Assembly (NCBI GenBank): GCA_016235065.1
Contig: JACRMB010000003.1
Span: forward strand, 593,943 to 657,942
Direction: 5' to 3'
Length of the DNA stretch: 64,000 nucleotides
Source: Actinomycetota bacterium
GTDB taxonomy: Bacteria > Actinomycetota > Thermoleophilia > BMS3ABIN01
Below are positions 1 through 13,648 of the stretch, one piece after another. A program made the translations under genes and the position numbers. The notes below the pieces were generated by a model, which saw only the letters and a program-made list of their open reading frames with translations, searched no databases and had not been told where the DNA came from. Within the stretch, counting starts at the first letter, position 1; every line of letters begins with the position of its first letter.

Positions 1-734
1 AAAGAAGGCGCGTTTTTAGCTTGACAAAAGTTCAAAAACCATTTGAAGGAAAAACGTATTCCGATCTTGATGAAAGAGATAGAGTCCGTTTAGATAATTC
101 GATTATTCACGCAACCATCGTAAAACAGACTTCTCCTCCAGGGGATGATACCAGCCTTTATCATATATTTGAAAGACTAAATACAGGTGGTAGACGGCTA
201 GCAGCGCAAGAAATGCGCGTTGCACTTTATCACGGTAATCTTATGAATAGGATTCGAGAGCTAAATGACTATTCTATATGGAGAAATATCTTTGGAAAGA
301 CACATACGAGATTAAAAGATCAGGAATTAATACTTCGTTTTATGGCCCTCTATACCGACTTTAAGGACTACAGCAGGCCAATGGGCGAATTTTTAAATAA
401 GTATGCAGGGCGCAATCGTAACGTCGGCGATGACCATCTTGAAGAACCATTAGAAGCATTCCGAAATTGTTGTAACCATTTTTGGGATGCTCTTGGAAAA
501 GAAATCTTCCGGCCCACTCGGGCATTGAATGCAGCAGTTTTTGATTCATGCATGATAGGCCTAGCGCAACGCTTAAAGAAAGACTCACATGTCAATCCTA
601 AACAAATTAAGAAAGCTTACGAGTCTTTGCTCGATGATTCGAGTTATGCAGAATCCGTGTCGCGTTCTACCGCGGATGAAGCTTATGTAGACCGTCGTAT
701 AAAATTATCAACATCAGCCTTTTCACAGATATGA
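1..734 (+). CDS. DUF262 (GmrSD N-terminal-like) protein, 5'-truncated by window edge
   Basis: The frame is open to the left edge (codon start 3), so only the C-terminal part of the protein is visible. A TTG at 21 could be read as a start but lies inside the conserved domain. The visible part has the DUF262 motif FERLNTGG followed by a conserved E-M-R (about 50 residues after the TTG), and the preceding IIHATIVKQ strand typical of the family. DUF262 is a ParB/Srx-like domain that hydrolyses nucleotides; it forms the N-terminal part of the modification-dependent restriction enzyme GmrSD and occurs alone in many defence loci. The DGQQR motif would lie upstream, outside the window. The stop is 1 nt from the next start (736), so the two are probably co-translated. 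The DNA is AT-richer than the rest of the window, suggesting acquisition. Family assignment is fairly sure; the target is unknown. Confidence 0.85.
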   Translation, partial: RRRVFSLTKVQKPFEGKTYSDLDERDRVRLDNSIIHATIVKQTSPPGDDTSLYHIFERLNTGGRRLAAQEMRVALYHGNLMNRIRELNDYSIWRNIFGKTHTRLKDQELILRFMALYTDFKDYSRPMGEFLNKYAGRNRNVGDDHLEEPLEAFRNCCNHFWDALGKEIFRPTRALNAAVFDSCMIGLAQRLKKDSHVNPKQIKKAYESLLDDSSYAESVSRSTADEAYVDRRIKLSTSAFSQI

Positions 735-735
735 A

Positions 736-1209
736 ATGAAAAGCCGCAGTCTAGTCCGGCAATATCAGAAAATCAATTGGTTGATTGAGAACACAGAAGT
801 GGCTAGTAAGGAGCAACTAGAATTGCAAGCACATTGGGGCCGATATCTTTGTGTTCTCGTTGCGGGATTTATGGAAAATGCGATCGGAGAAATCTATTCA
901 GACTTCAGTCGACAAGCTGCGAGTGATGCTGTGGCGAAATATGTATCGCATAAGGTACTACGAATTCAAAATCCAAATGCTCAACGGTTTGTTGAGACGG
1001 CAAGTGCGTTTAGAGTTGAATGGGGTAAAGACTTAGAATTATTTCTTGAGGGAAATGGTCGCAAAGCTGCAATTGATGCGATTATGGCGAATAGGCATCA
1101 GATTGCACACGGAAGTGATGCCGGTATTACTGTTGCACGCGTAAAAGATTATTTGCTCAAATGTGTTGAGGTAGTTGAGTATCTCGAAACTCAATGCAAT
1201 TTAGCTTAG
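736..1209 (+). CDS. HEPN-domain ribonuclease-like protein (RiboL-PSP-HEPN/MAE_28990 type)
   Basis: This 157-residue, mostly helical protein carries near its C-terminus an ANRHQIAHG segment. That gives the HEPN R-x4-H signature (R120, H125), the catalytic pair of HEPN ribonucleases. The N-terminal helices include WGRYLCVLVAGFMENAI, typical of the RiboL-PSP/MAE_28990-like HEPN group. HEPN proteins of this kind are toxins or abortive-infection effectors that cut RNA. The start lies 1 nt after the DUF262 stop, so the genes form a two-gene unit with probable translational coupling. Base composition matches the DUF262 gene and differs from the genes downstream. A role as the effector of a DUF262-controlled defence pair is inference; it could also be a simple toxin with DUF262 as partner or antidote. 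Confidence 0.75.
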   Translation: MKSRSLVRQYQKINWLIENTEVASKEQLELQAHWGRYLCVLVAGFMENAIGEIYSDFSRQAASDAVAKYVSHKVLRIQNPNAQRFVETASAFRVEWGKDLELFLEGNGRKAAIDAIMANRHQIAHGSDAGITVARVKDYLLKCVEVVEYLETQCNLA

Positions 1210-1595
1210 ATACGTGAGCTCTTGTTGATAGCTATCTCTAGTTGATCGAGAATGATCGAGAACTGCCAAGTTCGAATAGCTAACGGTAAGGTCCACCTCC
1301 TTCTTTCCTCTCAAAGTGGCTTTGCTTAACCCCCCTATTTCTTCTCCAAAACCATTAACAAAAAAGGGTTTCGAACCTTCTTTCTTGAAACGTAATTCCA
1401 GCGTTTGAGATTATGAGAGCGAACTCCCGATTTGAGTTTTACTCCTTTCTCTGTTTTGGCGGGCGTATTCGTTGTGACACAGTCCGTGCGCCTCTGATTT
1501 CACAAGTTCACGTTTCAGCAGAACCGATGTTTCAATAGTGTTACGTTGGGCATCTTGTTCGGCCAAGAGCTGGACGCTATGGAAAGGACCAGGAC
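1210..1595. other. Gene-free stretch between the defence pair and the lipoprotein genes
   Basis: No convincing gene is seen on either strand. A short direct repeat, GATCGAGAA, occurs twice within 20 nt near 1237-1262. A weak ribosome site (GGAAAGGACCAGG) just upstream of 1596 belongs to the next gene. The composition shifts here from the AT-rich left edge to the GC-rich body, so a boundary of the acquired segment may lie inside this stretch, but no attachment site is evident. Confidence 0.5.
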
Positions 1596-2654
1596 ATGAA
1601 GAAATGTGGTATCGCCATCGGTTTGGCCGCTATCTTTAGCGCAGCTGTTATGCTGGCAGGCTGTGGAAGCAACGGAACTAACACTACGGCAGACAACTCT
1701 ACTGCCGGCACGTCAACTACATCCCAGGGACCAGACTATTCGAACGCGGCAAACTGGCTGGCGCTTCCTTCCTCACCCGACGCCAAGCCGGTCGACGTCT
1801 TCTTCCTCTACCCGACAGCCTATCAGCAGCCCAGCCCGAGCGATCCGATAGTCTGCGCGATCGACAATCCGCAGATGCAGGCAGGAGCAAAATCAGCGTT
1901 CGCGAGAACAGCTACCGCTTTTGAGACTGAAGCCAATATCTATGCGCCCTGGTACGAGCAGGCCGCAATTCAGGTCCTGTCCCTGCCGCTAGACCAGCAA
2001 CAGGAGATAGTGGGAGGCCAGCCGACGCAGGACGCGATAGCTGCTTTTGACTACTACATCAAGCACTACAACAAAGGCAAGCCGTTCATCCTGGCGAGCC
2101 ACTCCCAGGGATCGAACATCATGATCAACCTGCTGGCCGCCTACATGAAGGATCATCCTGATGTATACGCGCGAATGATCGCCGCGTATGTGCCCGGATA
2201 TTCGATCACGCCCCAGTATCTTCAGCAAAATCCGGAACTTAAGTTCGCGAAAGGCCCTGATGACACTGGAGTGATCATCTCCTACAACACGGTCGCTCCC
2301 AATGCCACGATGCCCGATCCGGTGGTGCTGCCGGGGGCCCTGGTCATAAACCCCATAACCTGGACCACGGATCAGACGCTGGCGACCGCCGCCCAGAATC
2401 TGGGAAGCCTCTCTGTAGACGCCAACGGCAATGTGGCGCTGGACGCGCAGGGGCAACCGCAAAGAGTCCTGAATTACGCGGACGCACAGATCGATACAGC
2501 GAAGGGTGAGCTGATCTGCACTGTCGACCCTGGCACTCTCGCTCAGAATGACATGGTAGCCGGAGGTATTTACCACAACTACGACTACCCGTTCTACTAT
2601 TTCGATCTGCGGGCAAATGCCGCTAACCGGATCGCCAGGTTCCTGGCGAGGTAA
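1596..2654 (+). CDS. DUF3089 family lipoprotein, alpha/beta-hydrolase fold
   Basis: The 352-residue precursor begins with a lipoprotein signal peptide and lipobox LAGC (Cys23), followed by a Ser/Thr-rich linker to about residue 48. The VDVFFLYPTAY strand and the nucleophile-elbow-like ASHSQGSNI (Ser170) are hallmarks of DUF3089, an alpha/beta-hydrolase family of unknown substrate found on bacterial surfaces. The C-terminal GGIYHNYDYPFYYFDLRANA segment also fits the family. A ribosome site (AGGACCAGG) precedes the ATG. It is likely exported and anchored outside the cytoplasmic membrane. It begins a run of four exported-protein genes, three of them lipoproteins on the same strand, two with phosphodiester-type hydrolase domains. 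The stop codon lies in the first copy of a short tandem repeat, so the last codons may have been altered by slippage. Confidence 0.85.
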   Translation: MKKCGIAIGLAAIFSAAVMLAGCGSNGTNTTADNSTAGTSTTSQGPDYSNAANWLALPSSPDAKPVDVFFLYPTAYQQPSPSDPIVCAIDNPQMQAGAKSAFARTATAFETEANIYAPWYEQAAIQVLSLPLDQQQEIVGGQPTQDAIAAFDYYIKHYNKGKPFILASHSQGSNIMINLLAAYMKDHPDVYARMIAAYVPGYSITPQYLQQNPELKFAKGPDDTGVIISYNTVAPNATMPDPVVLPGALVINPITWTTDQTLATAAQNLGSLSVDANGNVALDAQGQPQRVLNYADAQIDTAKGELICTVDPGTLAQNDMVAGGIYHNYDYPFYYFDLRANAANRIARFLAR

Positions 2655-2690
2655 TCAGTTCCTGGCGAGGGCAATCAGTTCCTGGCGAGG
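2640..2690. repeat. Three tandem copies of a 12-base core with 19-20 base period
   Basis: TTCCTGGCGAGG occurs at 2640-2651, 2659-2670 and 2679-2690. The spacers are near-identical (TAATCAG, GCAATCAG, TAATTC). Copy one covers the last codons and stop of the DUF3089 gene; the other two fill the gap to the next gene. It looks like a local duplication by slippage. Confidence 0.9.
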
Positions 2691-2715
2691 TAATTCAAAG
2701 TAAAGGGGCAAACCG

Positions 2716-5634
2716 ATGCGGATGACGCGTACACCAAGGACGGCGAGCCTTTGTACACTGCTGATGCTCGGGGCATCCCTCTGCGCAGCCCTGTTCTTGT
2801 CTGGATGCGGTTCCGATTCCTCATCAGAATCTGCTGATAATATCCTCGTCAACGGCCGGCGGATATCGCCGGCGGGCACAATCAGCGATCCCGTCGGGAA
2901 CATGCCGCTCAACATAGTCCTCAGCCCTGACGGGCAATACGCCGTGACGACGTCCAGTTGCCTGGATACCCGCCTGAGCTCTGTCAGGGTAAGCGACGGC
3001 GCGGTGGTCAATTCGCTCTCCTTTCCGGCGGATGATCCAAGCATCCCGAACGGCGGACTCTTTTTCGGGTTGGCATTCGATCCCACTCCTCATAATAGTG
3101 CCTATACGCTCTATGCGGCCCAGGGAGCTTACGGGACTGTCGCCACGGTGACACTGGCGAGCGATGGGACCCTGACCAAGACCGGTACCATCCCTGCAAA
3201 TCCGCTTCCATACATGCCCGTTGACCAGCCGGCAGGCATCGCGTTTGCGAACGGGACCATCTTCATGGCCAATTATTTTTCAGTCGATCTGACAGCCGTC
3301 ACTCAGCCCGCGTCCACGCTCTCGCTGTACCGCGCAAGCGACGGCTCCCGGCTGGGCGGCTACACATTCATGGACGATGCCAAAACGAATACGCCGTCCT
3401 TCCCATACGCTGTCACAGCGAAATCCGATGGCACCAGGGCCTATGTCGCAAGCCAGCGGGATGACAGTGTCCATATCCTCAACACCGCCGATCCGGGCAA
3501 TATCACCCAGGCCTCGAAAATAACAAATCTAAGCCAGCCGTCCGCGCTTCTTCTTAACAAGGATCAGACGCTCCTGTACGTAGCCAACGCCGAAAGTGAC
3601 ACGATATCGGTTGTCGACATCGCGGCTGATCAGCCCCGGCTAAAGGCGACGGTGCTACTGCGCCCGGCTGATGTCAGCAATCTGCCCGGGGTATCTCCTT
3701 CGGGTCTGGCCCTGTCGCCTGACGAGAAGACCCTGTATGCGTCTCTTGGTGATTTCAACGCGGTAGCCGTCATCGATACGGCCGAGAACCAGTTGAGCGG
3801 CTACATTCCTGTTGGCTGGTATCCGACGGCCGTGACTGCCGCCGCGGATGGCAACTCATTGCTGGTTACGAACGGATGGGGCACCACTGCGATGAATCCC
3901 AATCCGAACCTGAACTATCTCGATCCCGACGTCGTGGGGATCAATTATTCTGTCAAACCTCCGGTATGGGCGGCTCCCCCCGGCCCGGGATATATCCTGA
4001 ATTCCATCCCGGGGAACGTCTCCAGGATCGATCTGGCCACGGCATCGTCGAATCTCGAAGCATCCACTATCCAGGTTGTCGAGAACAACCAGAACACTCC
4101 GGCCATGGGGAGCTCGGGCGATCGCGTGCTGGCGGACCTCGGCATCAAATCGGGGAAGATCAAACATGTCATCTACATCATCAAGGAGAACCGCGGTTAC
4201 GATCAGGTTCTGGGCGATCTGCCCCAGGGAAACGGGGATCCGTCACTGACCATCTACGGGAGGGATATCACCCCGAACCAGCATGCCCTGGCGGAGCGTT
4301 TCATCCTGCTCGACAACTTCTACAACAATGCTCCGGTGAGCGGTGAAGGCTGGGTGTGGTGCACTCAGAGCCAGGCGAATGCGTTCACCATTAAGAGCAT
4401 CCCTTACATATACCAGCTCTCCCTGGCAACGTACCAGCTTAATTACGGTTTCGAAGGGCAGGTAAACGGCTACGTTAGCGGTGGCTATCCGGCCCAGGAT
4501 CAGGATGGGAATCCGCTTTCTCCGACAGGACAGGCCGTGCCTGGCATCCCGAATGTCGCCGAGTCTCCCAGCGGTTATATCTGGGATGGCGTGAAAGATG
4601 CGGGACTGACCTATCGCAATTATGGCTTCATGCTATCAAGTGGCGCTCCCACAAAACCTCCGTACCAGATACCGGACAACTACCCCACAGTGGCAGGTCT
4701 TTCTCCCCCGGGACATATTCCCACACCCGATGGGCAGGTCCCCGGATACAGTGACTATGACTTCCGCAAGTTCGATTTCAACTATGCCGACAGTGACGCC
4801 TGGCTCAAACATGGTTTCGATGCCGCGTCCCTGGGGCTGACCACCGGGAGTCCGCCGGGCTATTACGCATCGCAAAATTCGCCGGTCGAGCCGCAGCCCA
4901 GCCGTTTTTCAGAATGGAACCGCGAGTTCCAGCAGATGCTCAAGGAGGATCCGACCGGCGACAGCGTGCCGGCTTTCATGACCGTGCGGTTCGGGCGCGA
5001 TCATACCATGGGGCTCAACCCGGGAAATTCCTCCCCGAGCGCGATGATGGCGGACAACGACTACGCTGTAGGCGAGCTGGTCGAAGCGGTGAGCAGGAGC
5101 CCTATCTGGGAGAGCACAGTGATATTCATCGTGGAGGACGACGCCCAGTTCAGCAACGATCATGTCGACAGCCATCGCTCTTTCATCCAGGTGATCAGTC
5201 CCTGGATCAAGAAATCGACCGTTGATTCTCATTTCTATGACACTAACAGCGTGTTGAAAAGTATGGAGCTTCTGCTCGGCCTGCCTCCCATGAGCCAGTA
5301 CGATCACTACGCCAATCCCATTCTGGGAGGATGGGACGAGGCGCCCGCCAACAATGATGTATACACCGCGATCCTGCCGCCCAGGGACATGATCGGCGAG
5401 ATGAATCCCGGCCTGGGGTCGTATGCGCCAAACAGTCAACTTCGTCGCATGGCCGAACTCTCCATGACAATGAACTGGGGCGTGGCAGACGCAGCGCCCT
5501 ACGCCGTGCTCAATGAGATCCTGTGGAAGGACGCGAGGGGTGCATTCGCGACCGTGCCAGGGCTGCGCTCCAGCAGTCTGAATCTTCCCGGACAGCAGCA
5601 GGAGGAGGAGGAATCAGGCGATGGCGATGATTGA
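2716..5634 (+). CDS. Lipoprotein with YVTN-type beta-propeller and phosphoesterase (PF04185-like) domain
   Basis: This 972-residue exported lipoprotein has lipobox LSGC with Cys31. Residues roughly 55-430 form a beta-propeller with YVTN-like blades such as LLYVANAESDTISVVDI and TLYASLGDFNAVAVID. From about residue 480 begins a phosphoesterase domain of the acid phosphatase/phospholipase C family. It has HVIYIIKENRGYDQ (E491-N492-R493) at its start, then ILLDNFYNNAPVSGEGW, and near 806-821 VEDDAQFSNDHVDSHR, where metal-binding Asp and His are expected. The C-terminus is acidic (QEEEESGDGDD). The family cleaves phosphate esters or phospholipids; the real substrate is unknown. The last 14 nt overlap the next gene, a phospholipase-D-like lipoprotein, which suggests co-expression for extracellular phosphodiester breakdown. 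Confidence 0.9.
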   Translation: MRMTRTPRTASLCTLLMLGASLCAALFLSGCGSDSSSESADNILVNGRRISPAGTISDPVGNMPLNIVLSPDGQYAVTTSSCLDTRLSSVRVSDGAVVNSLSFPADDPSIPNGGLFFGLAFDPTPHNSAYTLYAAQGAYGTVATVTLASDGTLTKTGTIPANPLPYMPVDQPAGIAFANGTIFMANYFSVDLTAVTQPASTLSLYRASDGSRLGGYTFMDDAKTNTPSFPYAVTAKSDGTRAYVASQRDDSVHILNTADPGNITQASKITNLSQPSALLLNKDQTLLYVANAESDTISVVDIAADQPRLKATVLLRPADVSNLPGVSPSGLALSPDEKTLYASLGDFNAVAVIDTAENQLSGYIPVGWYPTAVTAAADGNSLLVTNGWGTTAMNPNPNLNYLDPDVVGINYSVKPPVWAAPPGPGYILNSIPGNVSRIDLATASSNLEASTIQVVENNQNTPAMGSSGDRVLADLGIKSGKIKHVIYIIKENRGYDQVLGDLPQGNGDPSLTIYGRDITPNQHALAERFILLDNFYNNAPVSGEGWVWCTQSQANAFTIKSIPYIYQLSLATYQLNYGFEGQVNGYVSGGYPAQDQDGNPLSPTGQAVPGIPNVAESPSGYIWDGVKDAGLTYRNYGFMLSSGAPTKPPYQIPDNYPTVAGLSPPGHIPTPDGQVPGYSDYDFRKFDFNYADSDAWLKHGFDAASLGLTTGSPPGYYASQNSPVEPQPSRFSEWNREFQQMLKEDPTGDSVPAFMTVRFGRDHTMGLNPGNSSPSAMMADNDYAVGELVEAVSRSPIWESTVIFIVEDDAQFSNDHVDSHRSFIQVISPWIKKSTVDSHFYDTNSVLKSMELLLGLPPMSQYDHYANPILGGWDEAPANNDVYTAILPPRDMIGEMNPGLGSYAPNSQLRRMAELSMTMNWGVADAAPYAVLNEILWKDARGAFATVPGLRSSSLNLPGQQQEEEESGDGDD

Positions 5635-6733
5635 GAGCCGCAGCTTTGCGTCACGACTGACAGCCAGGGCCGTTGCTGTGACGGCTCTGCTGATGCTCTC
5701 TGCGGTGCTGTGGGGGTGCGGTACCCAGACTGGAACCGGCGGCACAGAGGGCACCACCTCAGATAGGCGCACCGGCGCCGACAGTCAATCCAGCGCCGAC
5801 GATCTGACTAGCGATTACAGTCTGACGATATTGCCGCAAGACGGATATCGGCCTATCTACGATTTCATCGCGGGAGCCAAAACAAGCATTGATATGGTCA
5901 TGTATCAGCTTGCGGACCCGACGGCCCAGGCTGCCCTCAAGGACGCTGCGCAAAGAGGCGTAAGGGTCAGGGTCCTGCTCGACTCCGACCCCCAGGGTGG
6001 CGGCGGTACGAAGGACAACCAGGCGGCATATGATGACCTGAACGCCAACGGCGTCGAGGTGAGATGGGCCTGGTCTGGCACGCTTTGGCACCAGAAGAGC
6101 ATCACCCGTGACGGAGAGGACGCCGCTGTGATGACCTGTAACCTCTATGCGCCGTTTTACCCGATCGTCCGGGATTACGCTGTCATCATCCATAACACCG
6201 CCACCGCGACCGGCATGGAGGAGACTTTCAACAAGGATTGGAACAACACTGACAGTCCACCATCGCAAGGGGCGATACCGGAAAGATCGGAGCTGATCTG
6301 GTCACCGGGTGCCGAGCCGAGGCTGGTTGCCCTCATCGACTCCGCCCGCCCGGGGACGACTCTCTACGCAGAGGATGAGCAGCTCGACAGTCCGCCGATC
6401 GAGCAGGCGCTGATCGCGGCAGTACAGAGGGGCGTCACTGTAAACCTGACCATGACCTATTCCGCTGATTATGTGGACGGTTTCAACACCCTGGCCGCCG
6501 CCGGAGTCCACGTAAGCCTTTATCAGCCGACAGCACCCATTTATATCCACTCCAAGGCCATCTCGGTGAACAATGACACAGTCTACGTGGGCAGCAGCAA
6601 TTTCACCACCGCGATGACCGATCAGAATCGCAACGTGGGGCTCATCACCATGGATCCCAAGGTGGTCCGTGGCATAACCGAGACCATGGCCGGCGATTTC
6701 GCGGGAGCGACTCCTTACAGCGCAAACGCTTAA
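5621..6733 (+). CDS. Phospholipase D-like lipoprotein with two HxK motifs
   Basis: The 370-residue precursor has a lipoprotein signal ending in LWGC (Cys33) and a polar linker to about residue 60. The first PLD motif is canonical H157-x-K159-x4-D164 (WHQKSITRDG). The second reads H310-x-K312 followed by GSSNF, but the residue at the usual Asp position is Asn317, with another Asp at 319. In the PLD superfamily the two histidines form one active site that cleaves phosphodiester bonds of lipids or nucleic acids via a phosphohistidine. The protein resembles the exported PLDc_2 group. It overlaps the upstream phosphoesterase gene by 14 nt. Activity despite the Asp-to-Asn change is plausible, but substrate and role are inferred. 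Confidence 0.88.
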   Translation: MAMIESRSFASRLTARAVAVTALLMLSAVLWGCGTQTGTGGTEGTTSDRRTGADSQSSADDLTSDYSLTILPQDGYRPIYDFIAGAKTSIDMVMYQLADPTAQAALKDAAQRGVRVRVLLDSDPQGGGGTKDNQAAYDDLNANGVEVRWAWSGTLWHQKSITRDGEDAAVMTCNLYAPFYPIVRDYAVIIHNTATATGMEETFNKDWNNTDSPPSQGAIPERSELIWSPGAEPRLVALIDSARPGTTLYAEDEQLDSPPIEQALIAAVQRGVTVNLTMTYSADYVDGFNTLAAAGVHVSLYQPTAPIYIHSKAISVNNDTVYVGSSNFTTAMTDQNRNVGLITMDPKVVRGITETMAGDFAGATPYSANA

Positions 6734-6802
6734 TAAATCAGGCTGCGGAGTTCACAACCTGTCTACCCCCACACAACTGCCATTGCTAAGCCATTTTCAC
6801 AT

Positions 6803-8776
6803 TTATACCTCAGGGAATGGTCCAGGGTACTCGAAGTAAGTCCCCACAGAACCGATCGCCGTTGCATAATTGGTCGTCCTGAAAAAGCTCGCACCTGAAG
6901 GAACCGTATATTTCAGAGTATAAACATCAGTCTGACCGGTTACGATGTCACCGATCGCGAGCGGTGTTGTCGTCACCATGCTGACACCGTTAGTGCATAC
7001 TGAACCTATGATGTTGACGGTCGTAGCTGCCGGGCCACTGTTTGAGATTGAGAAATCCACAGAAAGTTCCTGCGCCAGGTAGGATGCGTAATCCTGCCAG
7101 TACGTGCGGGTGAGAGAAGTCGTCAGGACCGGCTTTGTCCAGCCGCTTGCTGTTGTCCAGGGAAATTCGTCCTGACCACCGACGAACACGATTGGATTGT
7201 CGATGATGCCGTCGCCATCAGCGTCCGGGCCGTTCCAGCCCTGCCAGTAATTTCCACCGGTCGGCATCACTTGCGAGAAGAGATCCGTGCCGGGATTTCC
7301 TAAGAACTGTACACCGGTATTCTGCAGAAAGTTATTGTGGTAGAAGATGTTGGGTTGATCGGTGGGCGGCGTGGTCTCAAAATATGAGATCTTCAGGCCG
7401 TCACCTTGTGAGCTGAAGTCGTTGCTCGTAAAGACGTTCGCGTTTGATTCCGCAAGTTCCGCGGTCGGCCCCGATGTGCTGACATTGTTTGAATCAATGT
7501 TGTTGCCTGTCGATCCGTAAAGATAAATTCCTGCCCAAGCAAGATCGATGACGTTACCGCTGATGGTGTTGCCGCTGCTGAGACTCAAATCGATCGCAAC
7601 CTGATAGCCTGGTATCCAGTCACTGCCAACCTGGTTTCCGCGTATCAGGTTATCGGTTGAGTTCGACAACCCGATGCCCGGGCTAGAATTTTGAATCTTG
7701 TTGCCTTCGATCACATTGTTCGTACTTGAGTCAACTACGATTCCGATATCTGTGCTGAGCAGATTACCTGTGACGCGGTTCCAGCCTCCCCCGATAATGC
7801 TGATTCCATAGTAATAACTAACCAGACGGAAGTCGCACACAGTGACACCCGTCCGGTTGTTTAGCTGGATAGCAACGAATCCACTGTTTGCGCTCAATCC
7901 ATGGCCGCCGCCGTCGACGGTCACATTGTCGCTGTCGACCGATATGATCACATCGTCGAAGTCCTGGCCGATGGTGCAGGTCCGGCTTGCGCTGTCCCAG
8001 TTGCCGATCAGTGGGCAATCACCCCCAGTGGCGTCGTCACGGACATGAGCCTTCAATCCTTTCCTTATTGATGAGCTGTAGGTAACCGTATTCCCGGCGG
8101 CGTCGGCCATCGAGAAGGTAAAAGGATGAATGCCTCTACTTAGCGGAGGGCTGCTGCACTTGACGTCCTTCAGGTTCGAGACCTGGCACGAAACCGTTAT
8201 GCCATCGATGTCGAAGCTGGCGCTTTCAGGAACCACTCCGCTTGATGGTGCGGCATCGGAGAAGCGTGCCCAGAAGAGGAAATTATCCTGGAAAGATACC
8301 CGAGAGGGCGCGATGCCGTAGATCACGTCAAGCTCCGGGGGAAGGACATCGCTCGATGGCGGCAATGGGCTGGAGGCCGTGAAGCTGCTGCTGAAACTGG
8401 TGATGTTATAACCGTAATCGCGCAGATAGCCATGCACGGTGTGAGGGCTGGCGGTCAGATCGATGTTCATGGTACAGGTGATGTCGGAATTCTGGGTGAA
8501 GGTACAGCTGGCCGGCTGATTAGCTCCAGCATTCGGATAAATCAGGGTGTCATCGACGTATATCTCTCTCCAGGAGAGGAGTCCGGGATTACTGGCTGAG
8601 CCGGTATCGAAATAGTTCACCTGGATGACTACGCCGCTGATCCCGGATGTCCCGGATGGAGAAACCGAGGTGACTGTCGGGGGGATGGTATCGCCCCAGG
8701 CACCAGCGGTGTCAGCCTGGAAGGGCAGAAACAACAGGATGATGCTAATAGTCGCGGAGACAAGAAGATGTTTCAT
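6803..8776 (-). CDS. Secreted right-handed parallel beta-helix (NosD-like) protein
   Basis: The 657-residue protein has an N-terminal signal peptide (hydrophobic ISIILLFLPFQA, cleavage near residue 24). Residues roughly 30-240 contain Ig-like segments, including TIPPTVTSVSPSG. A beta-helix follows at about 260-510, with repeated turns such as NVIEGNKIQNSS, NLIRGNQVGSD, NTISGNVIDLA and NNIDSNNVSTSG, as in NosD/periplasmic copper-binding and carbohydrate-binding helices. A C-terminal beta domain of about 100 residues follows. It has no membrane anchor or sortase signal, so it is probably released or loosely held outside the cell. It is transcribed towards the lipoprotein cluster. The function may be polysaccharide binding or cleavage; no catalytic residues can be assigned. 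Confidence 0.85.
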   Translation of the reverse strand: MKHLLVSATISIILLFLPFQADTAGAWGDTIPPTVTSVSPSGTSGISGVVIQVNYFDTGSASNPGLLSWREIYVDDTLIYPNAGANQPASCTFTQNSDITCTMNIDLTASPHTVHGYLRDYGYNITSFSSSFTASSPLPPSSDVLPPELDVIYGIAPSRVSFQDNFLFWARFSDAAPSSGVVPESASFDIDGITVSCQVSNLKDVKCSSPPLSRGIHPFTFSMADAAGNTVTYSSSIRKGLKAHVRDDATGGDCPLIGNWDSASRTCTIGQDFDDVIISVDSDNVTVDGGGHGLSANSGFVAIQLNNRTGVTVCDFRLVSYYYGISIIGGGWNRVTGNLLSTDIGIVVDSSTNNVIEGNKIQNSSPGIGLSNSTDNLIRGNQVGSDWIPGYQVAIDLSLSSGNTISGNVIDLAWAGIYLYGSTGNNIDSNNVSTSGPTAELAESNANVFTSNDFSSQGDGLKISYFETTPPTDQPNIFYHNNFLQNTGVQFLGNPGTDLFSQVMPTGGNYWQGWNGPDADGDGIIDNPIVFVGGQDEFPWTTASGWTKPVLTTSLTRTYWQDYASYLAQELSVDFSISNSGPAATTVNIIGSVCTNGVSMVTTTPLAIGDIVTGQTDVYTLKYTVPSGASFFRTTNYATAIGSVGTYFEYPGPFPEV

Positions 8777-9174
8777 TTGCGCAGAAGATTCTCACAGCCA
8801 GACCGGGAAGTCAACCAGGGAGAAAGCAGGCTGGAGGAGTGGTGCAGCAATCAAATCAGATTTCCTCAAGGATCAAATCAGACCACTTAAAACTGTTGAA
8901 TCCCGCCTCGAATTCCGATAGTGTAATTTCGTTCCCTTCATGGCAGTGGAGTGGATCGACAGGACCACTCATGCGGCCGGCGTTTCAGGTGTATTGGTGG
9001 CAGGACGGAAAAAGCTGAGCCTGGTGGATTGCGTTAGCTTCGAGGTTATGAGGCGGCTGGCCATCAGGGATGTCTTTTGTTTCGATCGGCACTTCAGGGA
9101 GCAGGGATTCACGATCCTGTAAGTCAGTTCTCTTGTGGATACTTGGCGAATACCCATCAGTCGCTCGTCAGCCG
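8777..9174. other. 398-base stretch containing only a toxin remnant
   Basis: Apart from the truncated VapC-like frame at 8940-9122 I see no gene. A direct repeat ATCAAATCAGA occurs twice near 8850-8885, about 22 bases apart, before the remnant. No matching antitoxin gene is seen on either strand. Confidence 0.5.
8940..9122 (+). pseudogene. C-terminal remnant of a VapC-type PIN toxin
   Basis: This 60-codon frame matches only the last 60 or so residues of a VapC/PIN-domain toxin, a family normally of 130-140 residues. Visible are the central SLVDCVSFEVMRR motif, with one of the metal-binding Asp residues, and the C-terminal FDRHFREQGF motif. The N-terminal half with the first acidic residues is absent, and an in-frame stop (8919-8921) lies just upstream of the ATG. 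VapC toxins are Mg-dependent ribonucleases paired with an antitoxin; none is visible here. It is most likely a decayed toxin-antitoxin locus rather than a functional small protein. Confidence 0.7.
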
Positions 9175-9864
9175 CTACCGCTTCCACGCTTCCAGCAGAT
9201 GGTTCAGGCCCCACTGGGTCAGCATATAGCGCTTTGTGATGTCTGAGAACCCGGCCCTGGCGAGCCGCTCGATTATCTCGGTATCCTTCAGGTAGTAGGC
9301 TTCTTCTTCCTCCATGCCCCTCTCAGAATCCACGTCGTAACTGGTGCCAAGCTTCTTGTCGTAGAACTCGACGACTTTATGGGTGGCCACCATAGCTGCG
9401 GGATTGCCCATCGTGACGATGATGTTGCCACCGGGCTTGAGCACCCGGTATGCCTCGGCAAGTTCCGTGTCGCGTAGCGGCTCCGGCACGTGGTTGAGGT
9501 TGGCGATGAAGGTGACTGTCACGAAAGTCTCATCCTCGAAGGGGAAGGAGGAGAGGTCGTCGACGATATTTTCATCTGTGAGCCCGTCATACTTGTAGAC
9601 GTCGATGCCGACGCCGTTGCCGCCGAGGAACTCGTTGACAAAACGGTTGTATTTACCACAGCCGACATCGAGGCAGTATCCCTGCACGTAGCGGCTCACG
9701 CATTCGAAACGCTCGGTGGGCAGGGAAGACAGGCCCCATTTGTCGCTCTCCACGAGCACGAATGCCCGCAGGGGGAATGTCAGGAAGTCCTTGGTTTTTT
9801 GCGTTAAGGATCTGGGCATCAGAATCGCCGGCCGCCATTGCGCGGCGGATGACTGACAAATCAT
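9175..9864 (-). CDS. Class I SAM-dependent methyltransferase
   Basis: The protein has 229 residues from the ATG at 9864; a second ATG at 9819 would give 214. Neither has a clear ribosome site. The SAM-binding motif I GYCLDVGCGKYNRF lies at about residues 62-75, followed by GIDVYK at the end of strand 2 and EAYRVLKPGGNIIVTMGNP, the strand-5 region of the Methyltransf_11 group. The N-terminal segment before residue 55 is helical and basic. The substrate cannot be told. It is transcribed divergently from the SRAP gene and shows no operon partner. Confidence 0.8.
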   Translation of the reverse strand: MICQSSAAQWRPAILMPRSLTQKTKDFLTFPLRAFVLVESDKWGLSSLPTERFECVSRYVQGYCLDVGCGKYNRFVNEFLGGNGVGIDVYKYDGLTDENIVDDLSSFPFEDETFVTVTFIANLNHVPEPLRDTELAEAYRVLKPGGNIIVTMGNPAAMVATHKVVEFYDKKLGTSYDVDSERGMEEEEAYYLKDTEIIERLARAGFSDITKRYMLTQWGLNHLLEAWKR

Positions 9865-10005
9865 AATGCAGAAGCGGCTGATTGGAAACCTGGCTGCTGT
9901 TCGCTTGGCCTACAGCAATGCCGAAGCTCATTCTGCCAGCCGCACCGCCTTTTTTTCGATATTCCGGGCATAATAGAAACGTCACCATCCCAAAAGGGAA
10001 AGATC

Positions 10006-10668
10006 ATGTGCGGCAGCTTCACACAGCCAGGCGACATCAACATCCTGGAAAGCTTCAGGCAGAGGTTCGGTGTCGAGGTCAGCGATGACCCCGGCGACGC
10101 TGAGCCGGCGATCCGCAAGCAGCTGAAAGCAACCCCCTTCCGTGAGGTCAATGTCATCTATGCCGACCCCGATGGCACGGTGCGCCTGGCATCGATGTAC
10201 TGGCAGCTGATCTACCACTGGAACCAGGAGTTCAAGTCCCGGTACACCTGCTTCAACGTCAGGATGGAATCTCTGGACAAACGCCATAACGAGCCGCTGC
10301 TGATCAGGCGGCGCTGTGTCTTCCCGGTCATTGAATTCTTCGAGACCCGCAAGATCGGCGGCCGGCCGGTGCAGCCCCGGGAGTCATATGAATTCCACCG
10401 CAAAGGCGGCGGCCTCATGGCTCTGGGCGGCATCTATTCGGTTTGGCACAATCCCGAGGAGGAATAGGACCGGCGCTTCAGCTGCAGCTTGATAACCCTG
10501 GAGCCTACGCCGATCATCGCCGAGATCCACAACCGCATGCCCTTCGTTCTGGAGGATGCTGCTGTGAAGGCCTGGCTGGACCCGGAGAACACCGAATTCG
10601 AAAAGCTTATGGAAATGATCCGGCCTATCAGCTCAGAAGATCTGGAGCGGACACCGAGTCCCTGTTAG
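10006..10668 (+). pseudogene. SRAP (YedK/HMCES-like) abasic-site protein interrupted by an in-frame amber codon
   Basis: The gene starts MCGSF, exposing the catalytic Cys2 of the SRAP family, which crosslinks to abasic sites in single-stranded DNA. N84 (CFNVRMES) and E113 (RCVFPVIEFFE) match the conserved Asn and Glu. At codon 154 (10465-10467) an in-frame TAG ends the strict reading frame. The same frame continues without further stops to a TAG at 10666-10668 and encodes the rest of the domain, including IHNRMPFVLE with conserved His175. Total length with read-through is 220 residues, normal for SRAP. As a 153-residue protein it would lack the His needed for crosslink reversal. Explanations are a recent nonsense mutation, a sequencing error, or suppressor read-through; since many genes here end in TAG, general recoding is unlikely. 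Confidence 0.85.
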
Positions 10669-11131
10669 CCCTCAAAACCCCCGGTTTAAGCGGAATGCCG
10701 CCTGTGCTATAATGTTACCATCCTGAAGAGGGGAGGCAGAGGCAGTTTGTCAGTGTTATCCGGTGGCGCGGATTCAGCTGGCAGAACCCACTGAAACTGT
10801 AAACCACGCACGTTTTTCTCAAGCCGGCCTAAGGCCGGCGCTGTTTTAAGGCTAATTTCCTGTCAACCTTTTAGGGTGCAAATCACCAGGGCGATTTCCA
10901 GGAACAGAATTTATTTCGGCGCTCGGCGTCAGCCTGAGCAGGCATTTTACCGTCTGCCAGCGGCGTTTATTCAAGCCTGAGCCCGGCACGGCCGATTGGG
11001 CGTGCAAAGGATTAGCGCCGGCGGGCGGCGAAGTCCGGAACCTTGTTAGTTTCGGCCACAGCCAGCCCGGGAACATTAGGGCATGAGGGGCATTCACCAA
11101 GGGGTGGATTTACCCGGGAAAGGTGATTCAC
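10669..11131 (+). other. Long structured leader or small-RNA region before clpC
   Basis: No protein gene is convincing in these 463 bases. After the candidate -10 box, CAGTTTGTCAGTG near 10752 can pair with CACTGAAACTG near 10788. At 10824-10840 there is a 7-bp perfect stem, GCCGGCC/GGCCGGC with a TAA loop, followed by GCTGTTTTA, which resembles a weak terminator. The segment of about 130 nt between could be a small RNA or an attenuated leader. I could not match it to a known RNA family. A ribosome site, GGGAAAGGTG, sits just before clpC. Confidence 0.45.
10708..10713 (+). promoter_or_regulatory. Candidate -10 element upstream of clpC
   Basis: TATAAT preceded by TGTGC resembles an extended -10 box (TGTGCTATAAT). 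The -35 region is weak (GGTTTA-like). It would place a transcript start near 10720, about 400 nt before clpC. Confidence 0.45.
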
Positions 11132-13648
11132 ATGTTTGAACGATTTACTGAAAGAGCGCGCCAGGTAGTGGTCCTGGCCCAGGAAGAGGCCAGGGCTCTG
11201 AAGCACAATTACATAGGCACCGAGCACCTTCTGCTCGGGCTGCTTCGTGAGGAAGAGGGTATAGCCGCCCAGGTCCTCACAACCCTGGATGTGAACCTGG
11301 ACGAAGTGCGCATGCAGGTGGCCCAGATAGTCGGCATGGGCGACGAGGTCGCCGCCGGCCAGATACCCTTCACCCCACGGGCGAAGAAGGTCCTGGAGCT
11401 GGCCCTGCGTGAGGCGCTCTCACTAGGTCACAACTACATCGGCACCGAGCACATCCTGCTCGGGCTCATCAAGGAGAACGAGGGCGTCGCCGCCCGCATC
11501 CTCCTCGAGTTTGACGCCGACTCCGAAAAGATCCGCAACGAGATCATGCGCAAGCTGACCGGCTCCGCACGCCGCACGCCAGTTCCCCAGGGCGAGGGCA
11601 AGAAGCGGGTCAAGCTGCTCGACCAGTTCGGCCGCAACCTCACCAAGCTCGCCGACGAAGGCAAGCTGGACCCGGTGGTTGGCCGCGAACAGGAGATCGA
11701 GCGCGTCATGCAGATACTCTCCCGTCGCACCAAGAACAACCCGGTGCTGATCGGCGAACCCGGTGTGGGCAAGACCGCCGTAGTCGAAGGCCTGGCCCAG
11801 CGTATATCCAGCAACGACGTGCCCGAGCTGCTCAAGGGCAAGCAGATATATACACTCGACCTGGCTGCTCTGGTAGCCGGTTCCAAGTACCGTGGTGAGT
11901 TCGAGGAGCGCCTCAAGAAGGTCATGAAGGAGATCCACGAGCACGGTGAAATCATCCTCTTCGTCGACGAGCTGCACAATCTTGTCGGTGCGGGCGCGGC
12001 TGAAGGCGCCATCGACGCCGCCAGCATCCTCAAGCCGGCCCTGGCCCGTGGCGAGCTGCAGACTATCGGCGCCACGACCATCGAGGAATACCGCAAATAT
12101 GTGGAAAAGGACGCTGCTCTCGAACGGCGCTTCCAGCAGATAATGGTGAATGAGCCGAGCGAGGAGGACACCGAGCTGATCCTGCACGGCCTCCGTGACC
12201 GCTATGAGGCACATCACCGCATCAAGATCACCGACGAGGCTCTCAAGGCCGCGGCGCGGCTGTCAGCGCGCTATATCTCCGACCGTTTCCTGCCGGACAA
12301 GGCGATTGACGTAATCGACGAGGCTGCATCGCGCATGCGCATCAAGACCATGACGGCGCCGCCAAAGTACCGCGAGCTCGAGGGCGAGATCGAGACGGTG
12401 CGCAAGGAGAAGGAAGCCGCCATCGAGGCCCAGGAGTTCGAGAAGGCCGCCAACCTGCGCGACAAGGAGCGCAAGCTCTCCAACCGCAAGCGGGAACTGG
12501 CAGAGGAATGGAAGAACGACGAGGGTCGTGAAGTGGTATCCATCGGCGAGGAAGAGATCGCCGACATCGTCTCCATGTGGACCGGCATCCCGGTGTTCAA
12601 GCTGACTGAGGGCGAGTCCCAGAAACTGCTGCGCATGGAGGACGTGCTGCACAAGCGGGTCGTCGGCCAGGACCAGGCCATCAAGGCTGTATCCAAGGCC
12701 ATTCGCCGGTCAAGGGCGGGCATCAAGGATCCGCGCCGTCCCGGCGGTTCCTTCATCTTCCTGGGCCCCTCGGGCGTAGGCAAGACCGAGCTGGCGCGTA
12801 CCCTGGCCGAGTTCCTCTTCGGCAATGAGGACGCGTTGCTGCAGGTCGACATGTCTGAATACATGGAAAAACACGCCGTCTCCCGCCTGGTCGGTTCGCC
12901 CCCGGGCTATGTCGGCTACGAGGAGGGCGGCCAGCTTTCCGAAGCGGTGCGCCGCAAGCCTTATTCGGTCATCCTGCTCGACGAGATCGAGAAGGCGCAT
13001 CCCGACGTTTTCAATATCCTCCTGCAGATCCTCGAGGACGGTCATCTGACCGACTCCCAGGGACGCAAGGTGGATTTCCGCAACACCATCGTCATCATGA
13101 CCTCCAACATCGGCGCCAAGACCATCGCCAAGGAAAGTCCGCTGGGCTTCGCCGCCATCGAAGAAGAGGGCATGTCTTACGACGATATGAAGATGAACAT
13201 CACCGGTGAGCTCAAGCGGGTCTTCCGGCCCGAGTTCCTCAACCGTGTCGATGAAGTCATCGTCTTCCACAAACTGGACCGTGCCGATATCACCTCGATC
13301 GTCGACCTGATGATCGCCCGCGTCAGCCAGCAGCTGGCCGAGCGCCATGTGATGATCGAGCTGACCGTCCCCGCCAAGGAACTGCTGGTGGAGAAGGGCT
13401 TCGATCCGGGCATGGGGGCCAGACCGCTGCGCCGCGCTATCCAGCAATACGTGGAGGACCTGCTCGCTGACGAAGTCCTGGCGGGCGCTATTCCTGATGG
13501 CTCAACCGTGCTGGTCGACCGCAAGGACGACCGGACGTTCATGACTCTGCTCGCAAAGGAACACAAGCCTAAAAAGGACCTGGTAGGCGCCTCTGGCGAA
13601 AGGTCCGAGGCAGCCAAGCCGGCACGCACAGATGGCGAAGGTTCATAG
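11132..13648 (+). CDS. clpC: ATP-dependent Clp protease ATP-binding subunit ClpC
   Basis: The 838-residue AAA+ unfoldase starts [13 protein letters not shown], as ClpC proteins do. A GTG nine bases upstream is also open, but the ribosome site fits the ATG. Two Clp-N repeats occupy residues 1-145. NBD1 has Walker A GEPGVGKT near 208 and [14 protein letters not shown] segment ([20 protein letters not shown]) lies near 430, and NBD2 has [10 protein letters not shown] near 548 and a C-terminal D2-small domain. ClpC feeds unfolded proteins to ClpP and, in Gram-positives, handles regulated proteolysis. It heads the conserved clpC-radA-disA block and overlaps radA by 17 nt. No ctsR or mcsAB genes precede it, unlike in Bacillus. 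Confidence 0.97.

What the first reader, a model, noticed from the sequence alone, without database searches (positions are those of the whole stretch)
10006..10668. SRAP gene split by an in-frame amber codon
A textbook SRAP protein (Cys2, N84, E113) is cut at codon 154 by TAG, yet the same frame continues with the conserved IHNRMPFVLE including the His needed for crosslink reversal, up to a normal-length end. A single base change would restore it. If real, it is a very recent null or half-functional allele (crosslinks without release), or it needs amber read-through.
Basis: partly seen in the sequence, partly recalled or inferred. Interest (0 to 1): 0.6.

Follow-up and report, generated by a model that had tools for sequence, protein, structure and literature searches.

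The report
Freshly broken DNA-repair gene (SRAP pseudogene)
A bacterial gene for a protein that caps damaged DNA sites carries a premature stop codon, and a sister species carries a different one in the same gene, so this is ordinary recent gene decay in a lineage that often loses the gene, not evidence of a special genetic code.

Summary
Window 10006-10668 is a full-length SRAP (YedK/HMCES-type) frame with C2, N84, E113 and H175, interrupted only by TAG at codon 154 (10465-10467). The best reading is a recent nonsense allele (young pseudogene) of the genome's only SRAP gene. Of the six other species held in the genus, two keep intact copies, one (G004) has a different in-frame TAG at the invariant Trp66, and three have none. 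In G001 a PIN/RHH toxin-antitoxin-like pair sits upstream of clpC instead. In the wider family, two more copies are damaged.

Amber recoding is not supported. G000 has no pyrrolysyl-tRNA synthetase and an intact RF1. None of the tRNAs typed in G000 or G004 has a CUA anticodon. TAG ends about a third of sampled genes, including this one, with no coding continuation beyond three ordinary gene junctions. The two TAGs replace unrelated residues, so no single amino acid is implied. Constraint is equal on both sides of the stop, so the mutation is young; leaky or regulated read-through cannot be excluded. A 'cross-links without release' half-enzyme is unlikely, because truncation removes a core strand, and in YedK the lost His is also needed for cross-linking.

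The parts
10006..10467 (+). SRAP N-terminal part as an open frame, 153 aa, ending at the in-frame TAG
   Evidence: Pfam SRAP 63 bits for this part alone
10465..10467 (+). in-frame TAG, codon 154; Asp or Glu in the nearest relatives
   Evidence: alignment with L005, L006, L007
10468..10665 (+). undecayed C-terminal third of the SRAP frame (66 codons) with H175 and the IHNRMP motif
   Evidence: read-through model shows the SRAP fold
10666..10668 (+). normal end codon, itself TAG
   Evidence: L005 (intact) and L006 also end in TAG
9961..10005 (+). kept upstream region: CCGGGCATAAT (-10-like, shared with L005 and L006) and a Shine-Dalgarno-like AAGGGAAAG
   Evidence: side-by-side upstream sequences; the simple promoter scan did not call it
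11123..13648 (+). clpC, conserved neighbour used to test whether SRAP is at the same place in relatives
   Evidence: (Clp_N, AAA_2)

Best explanation
This is a recently inactivated SRAP (YedK/HMCES-type abasic-site cross-linking) gene. A nonsense substitution at codon 154 stops translation through RF1 at an ordinary amber codon. The predicted product is a 153-residue fragment without the strand at 152-165, the catalytic His175 and the C-terminal helices, most likely misfolded and inactive. The gene was inherited vertically upstream of clpC and is dispensable in this lineage: congeners have lost it or carry independent lesions. Shown: the TAG, intact relatives, independent lesions, absence of recoding machinery. 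Inferred: that no useful protein is made.
For: Single TAG in an otherwise intact frame. The only SRAP found in a 98.9% complete genome. Congener G004 has a different in-frame TAG at invariant Trp66, also seen in the GTDB-220 record of that contig, whose name states coverage 180. G005 and G002 are intact and in the same place before clpC. G001, 100% complete, has no SRAP; a PIN/RHH pair lies upstream of clpC instead. G003 and G006 have no match either. G009 is frameshifted near codon 66 and G012 loses the SRAP sequence after RMPF. So 4 of 13 SRAP genes in the family are damaged; of the main copies in 48 other genomes of the class none is flagged with an in-frame stop or split (by chance about 0.001 that all four fall in this family). 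RF1 present; no PylS; no CUA tRNA found; TAG is 34% of stops and only 3 of 115 TAG ends show coding-like continuation, all ordinary junctions of neighbouring genes. About half of all single-step nonsense changes in this gene would give TAG, so two ambers are not surprising.
Against: The sequence after the TAG shows no decay: dN/dS 0.136 after against 0.128 before, and the window has as many private changes at conserved sites as the intact sister. The -10-like and Shine-Dalgarno-like sequences are kept. A gene still made by leaky read-through would look the same. Raw reads were not available.
Confidence: 0.77

Rival explanations
1. Leaky or regulated amber read-through keeps a low level of full-length SRAP; the TAG works as an expression throttle.
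For: No decay downstream; promoter-like and ribosome-binding-like sequences kept; two congeners carry an amber in the same gene. In-frame stops in bacterial genes with dN/dS below 1 have been reported as widespread (PMC7918605).
Against: The two ambers are at different sites and replace unrelated residues (Asp/Glu column; invariant Trp). No CUA tRNA or PylS found, RF1 present. No unusual RNA structure after the TAG (z = -0.15). No TAG-specific coding continuation among 341 gene-like ORFs sampled. The same paper finds that most in-frame stops persist only for times typical of population polymorphism.
Confidence: 0.08
2. Sequencing or assembly error at codon 154; the living population has an intact gene.
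For: One substitution is enough; raw reads are not available here.
Against: A substitution, not the indel typical of long-read error; the genome is a good assembly (10 contigs, 98.9% complete); an independent lesion of the same class exists in a congener.
Confidence: 0.09
3. The 153-residue fragment is a working half-enzyme that cross-links to abasic sites and cannot release itself.
For: C2, N84 and E113 lie in the retained part.
Against: Truncation removes a modelled core strand (152-165), H175 and the C-terminal helices. In YedK H160A is at least 10-fold slower at cross-linking and H160Q about 10-fold (PMC9436759). The congener's TAG at codon 66 would leave no such enzyme.
Confidence: 0.04
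4. Pyrrolysine or another dedicated amber decoding, related to the Pyl systems found elsewhere in the class.
For: Other families of the same class do have PylS and, in G022, tRNA-Pyl.
Against: None of the 12 genomes of the window's own family that were searched has PylS above cut-off; no tRNA-Pyl found in G000 or G004; the SRAP genes end in TAG themselves.
Confidence: 0.02

Closest known systems
SRAP family (Pfam PF02586): E. coli YedK, human HMCES
   Same: Fold (read-through model matches HMCES 6oov, YedK 6kcq and 6nua with Foldseek probability 1.00), length, and the C2, N84, E113, H175 set
   Different: Divergent subgroup (17-24% identity to solved structures) and cut by a stop codon at 70% of its length
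Nonsense-interrupted bacterial genes with a conserved downstream frame (Belinky et al. 2021, PMC7918605)
   Same: Single in-frame stop, dN/dS well below 1 in the gene
   Different: Here the stop is not shared by position with any relative found, so it is a one-species allele
Pyrrolysine-encoding genes (mtmB, mtbB, mttB) with in-frame TAG
   Same: In-frame TAG inside a conserved frame; Pyl systems exist in other families of this class
   Different: No pyl genes found in this genome, TAG position not conserved, not a methylamine methyltransferase

Membership tests
SRAP (PF02586) | Match to the family profile above its curated cut-off | tested here: met
   Read-through 120.5 bits and N-part alone 63 bits against a cut-off of 27.1
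SRAP (PF02586) | Active-site Cys2, Asn, Glu and His in one polypeptide | tested here: not met
   All four are in the frame, but His175 lies after the TAG, so the predicted product lacks it
SRAP (PF02586) | SRAP fold | tested here: met
   Only for the read-through sequence: pLDDT 86, pTM 0.86; best hits are SRAP structures
SRAP (PF02586) | Cross-links to abasic sites in single-stranded DNA | not testable with these tools
   needs purified protein
Pseudogene (nonsense allele) | Premature stop in a conserved frame, with intact orthologues at the same place | tested here: met
   G005 and G002 intact and upstream of clpC
Pseudogene (nonsense allele) | Relaxed constraint after the stop | tested here: not met
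   dN/dS equal on both sides; expected if the mutation is recent, so it does not separate a young pseudogene from read-through
Recoded amber (Pyl or suppressor tRNA) | PylS or a tRNA with CUA anticodon in the genome | tested here: not met
   PylS profile at most 20.9 bits against a cut-off of 178; no CUA among the tRNAs typed
Recoded amber (Pyl or suppressor tRNA) | TAG rare as a stop or RF1 lost | tested here: not met
   TAG ends 115 of 341 gene-like ORFs; RF1 491 bits
Recoded amber (Pyl or suppressor tRNA) | Position of the TAG conserved among relatives | tested here: not met
   Codon 154 is sense in every relative aligned; G004 has TAG at codon 66

The most novel reading that the evidence does not exclude
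In this genus SRAP tolerates amber codons because a trickle of near-cognate read-through still gives enough protein, so the ambers are tuning alleles rather than nulls.
Probability: 0.07. Interest if true: 0.45.

Novelty: new member of a known kind. Interest (0 to 1): 0.17.

Why it matters
Mostly as a caution: a clean in-frame amber in a conserved gene can be plain gene loss caught early. It adds one point of interest, that the abasic-site shield SRAP is repeatedly disabled in one uncultured actinobacterial family, so these species may be natural cases of life without SRAP.

Tried and rejected
Pyrrolysine decoding: PylS profiles gave no hit over cut-off in the genome or in the other genomes searched from its family. 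Suppressor tRNA: 49 tRNA-like places in G000, plus weak and truncated ones in G004, were typed or aligned; none has CUA. Loss of RF1: found intact in G000; in G004 the gene start lies at a contig end (C225:8-204), so its apparent absence is an assembly gap. RNA structure after the stop: not unusual. A general TAG read-through signal: the raw count of long extensions after TAG (48 of 115) looked high, but only three had coding-like sequence straight after the stop, and these are ordinary junctions to a following gene (judged by eye: dnaX-ybaB, rplS-lepB, rpe). First alignment attempts used unoriented loci and are void; one search replaces them.

Full report
What is there. Window 10006-10668 (+) reads as a full-length SRAP protein with one internal TAG at codon 154 (10465-10467) and a TAG end codon. 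Read through, it matches Pfam SRAP over nearly the whole profile (120.5 bits); the part before the stop alone still matches (63 bits). Cys2, Asn84, Glu113 and His175 are invariant across the family alignment. A model of the read-through protein (pLDDT 86, pTM 0.86) finds HMCES and YedK structures among its best hits.

Where it is. The window lies in a 2.37 Mb, 98.9% complete genome in 10 contigs. Named relatives are uncultured MAGs deposited as Thermoleophilia, Gaiellales or Actinomycetes. Only one SRAP is found in the genome.

Relatives. In the genus, G005 (76% identical) and G002 (59%) have intact SRAP genes, located upstream of clpC as here. G004 (73-74%) has a single in-frame TAG, not at codon 154 but at codon 66, an invariant Trp in all other sequences aligned over that region; the same TAG is in the GTDB-220 record of that contig, whose name states coverage 180. 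That record is very probably the same assembly, so it confirms the letters but is not a second sequencing. G001, G003 and G006 have no SRAP. In G001 the DNA upstream of clpC holds a PIN-domain gene and an RHH gene instead; in G003 and G006 little or no upstream sequence is held before the contig ends, so the site itself could not be read. In the wider family, G009 is frameshifted near codon 66, and in G012 the SRAP sequence is replaced by unrelated sequence after RMPF (a chimeric contig is possible there). In a survey of 199 genomes of the class, 61 have SRAP. In-frame stops occur only in G000 and G004, and all four damaged main copies are in this family of 13; the chance that all four would fall there is about 0.001. 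The stop-in-frame column does not count frameshifts, so the figure rests on the main copies outside the family being listed as single matches; extra fragmentary copies do exist in G053 and G170. The test was made after seeing the data.

Is TAG read as an amino acid here? Five results speak against it. (1) PylS profiles give no hit over cut-off in G000 or in the 11 other genomes of the family that were searched. (2) No tRNA typed in G000 or G004 has a CUA anticodon; the two weak G000 hits that ARAGORN did not call (C3:573059, C2:61258) read as tRNA fragments by eye. (3) RF1 is present in G000, and the start of its gene is at a contig end in G004. (4) In 464 kb sampled, TAG ends 115 of 341 gene-like ORFs; only three have coding-like sequence right after the stop, and these are normal gene junctions. 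(5) The two SRAP TAGs replace unrelated residues, and the SRAP genes of G000, G004 and G005 end in TAG. About half of all single-step nonsense changes in this gene give TAG, so two ambers need no special cause.

How old is it? dN/dS between window and intact sister is 0.128 before and 0.136 after the TAG, and private changes at conserved columns are equal to those of the intact sister. The -10-like CCGGGCATAAT and a ribosome-binding-like sequence are kept. The stop is therefore recent compared with species divergence. These data cannot separate a young null from a gene still expressed by leaky read-through; published work argues that in-frame stops in bacteria are common, often short-lived and not always nulls (PMC7918605).

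What would the fragment do? It lacks the strand at 152-165, His175 and the C-terminal helices. In YedK the equivalent His is needed for fast cross-linking as well as release (H160A at least 10-fold slower, exchange severely slowed in H160Q; PMC9436759). A cross-linker that cannot release is therefore unlikely, and would not explain the codon-66 allele of G004.

Verdict. A recent nonsense allele of a dispensable SRAP gene in a lineage that loses or breaks it often: ordinary gene decay, with a small remaining chance of sequencing error or leaky read-through.

Noticed in passing
L131 (G022:C12:44000-56000), 4544-11996; also G020:C24:14495-15220 and G025:C15:983-1708: Other families of the same class carry pyrrolysine machinery: PylS C-domain (279-313 bits), in G022 a tRNA-Pyl (CTA), a radical-SAM PylB-like ORF, and MtmB-like and methyltransferase-like genes with in-frame TAG at codons 209 and 388. 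Pyl decoding in this actinobacterial class may deserve its own look.
   Followed up: partly
L137 (G000:C2, near 87390), L070 70-150, and more than 30 places in G002: A short dispersed repeat of the form ggggacacattacttaattaccag, partly in inverted pairs, seems to be scattered through genomes of this genus and resembles REP-type elements; that the L070 and L137 repeats are the same element was not checked.
   Followed up: no
L070 (G000:C3:572900-573400) and L071 (G000:C2:61000-61500): tRNA fragments next to what looks like integrase or other mobile-element coding sequence, probably attachment-site remnants.
   Followed up: no
L180-L184 (G004 contigs C69, C158, C19): Several degenerate tRNA-Leu(CAA)-like copies in G004, some clustered on contig C158; possible att-site or tRNA-like array.
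   Followed up: partly
window 1-9864: About 10 kb with HEPN-like, DUF3089, phosphoesterase/lactonase-like, PLD-like and NosD beta-helix genes lies between the tRNA-synthetase-like gene just before the window and SRAP-clpC; in G002 the corresponding distance is about 1 kb, so this looks like an insertion.
   Followed up: partly
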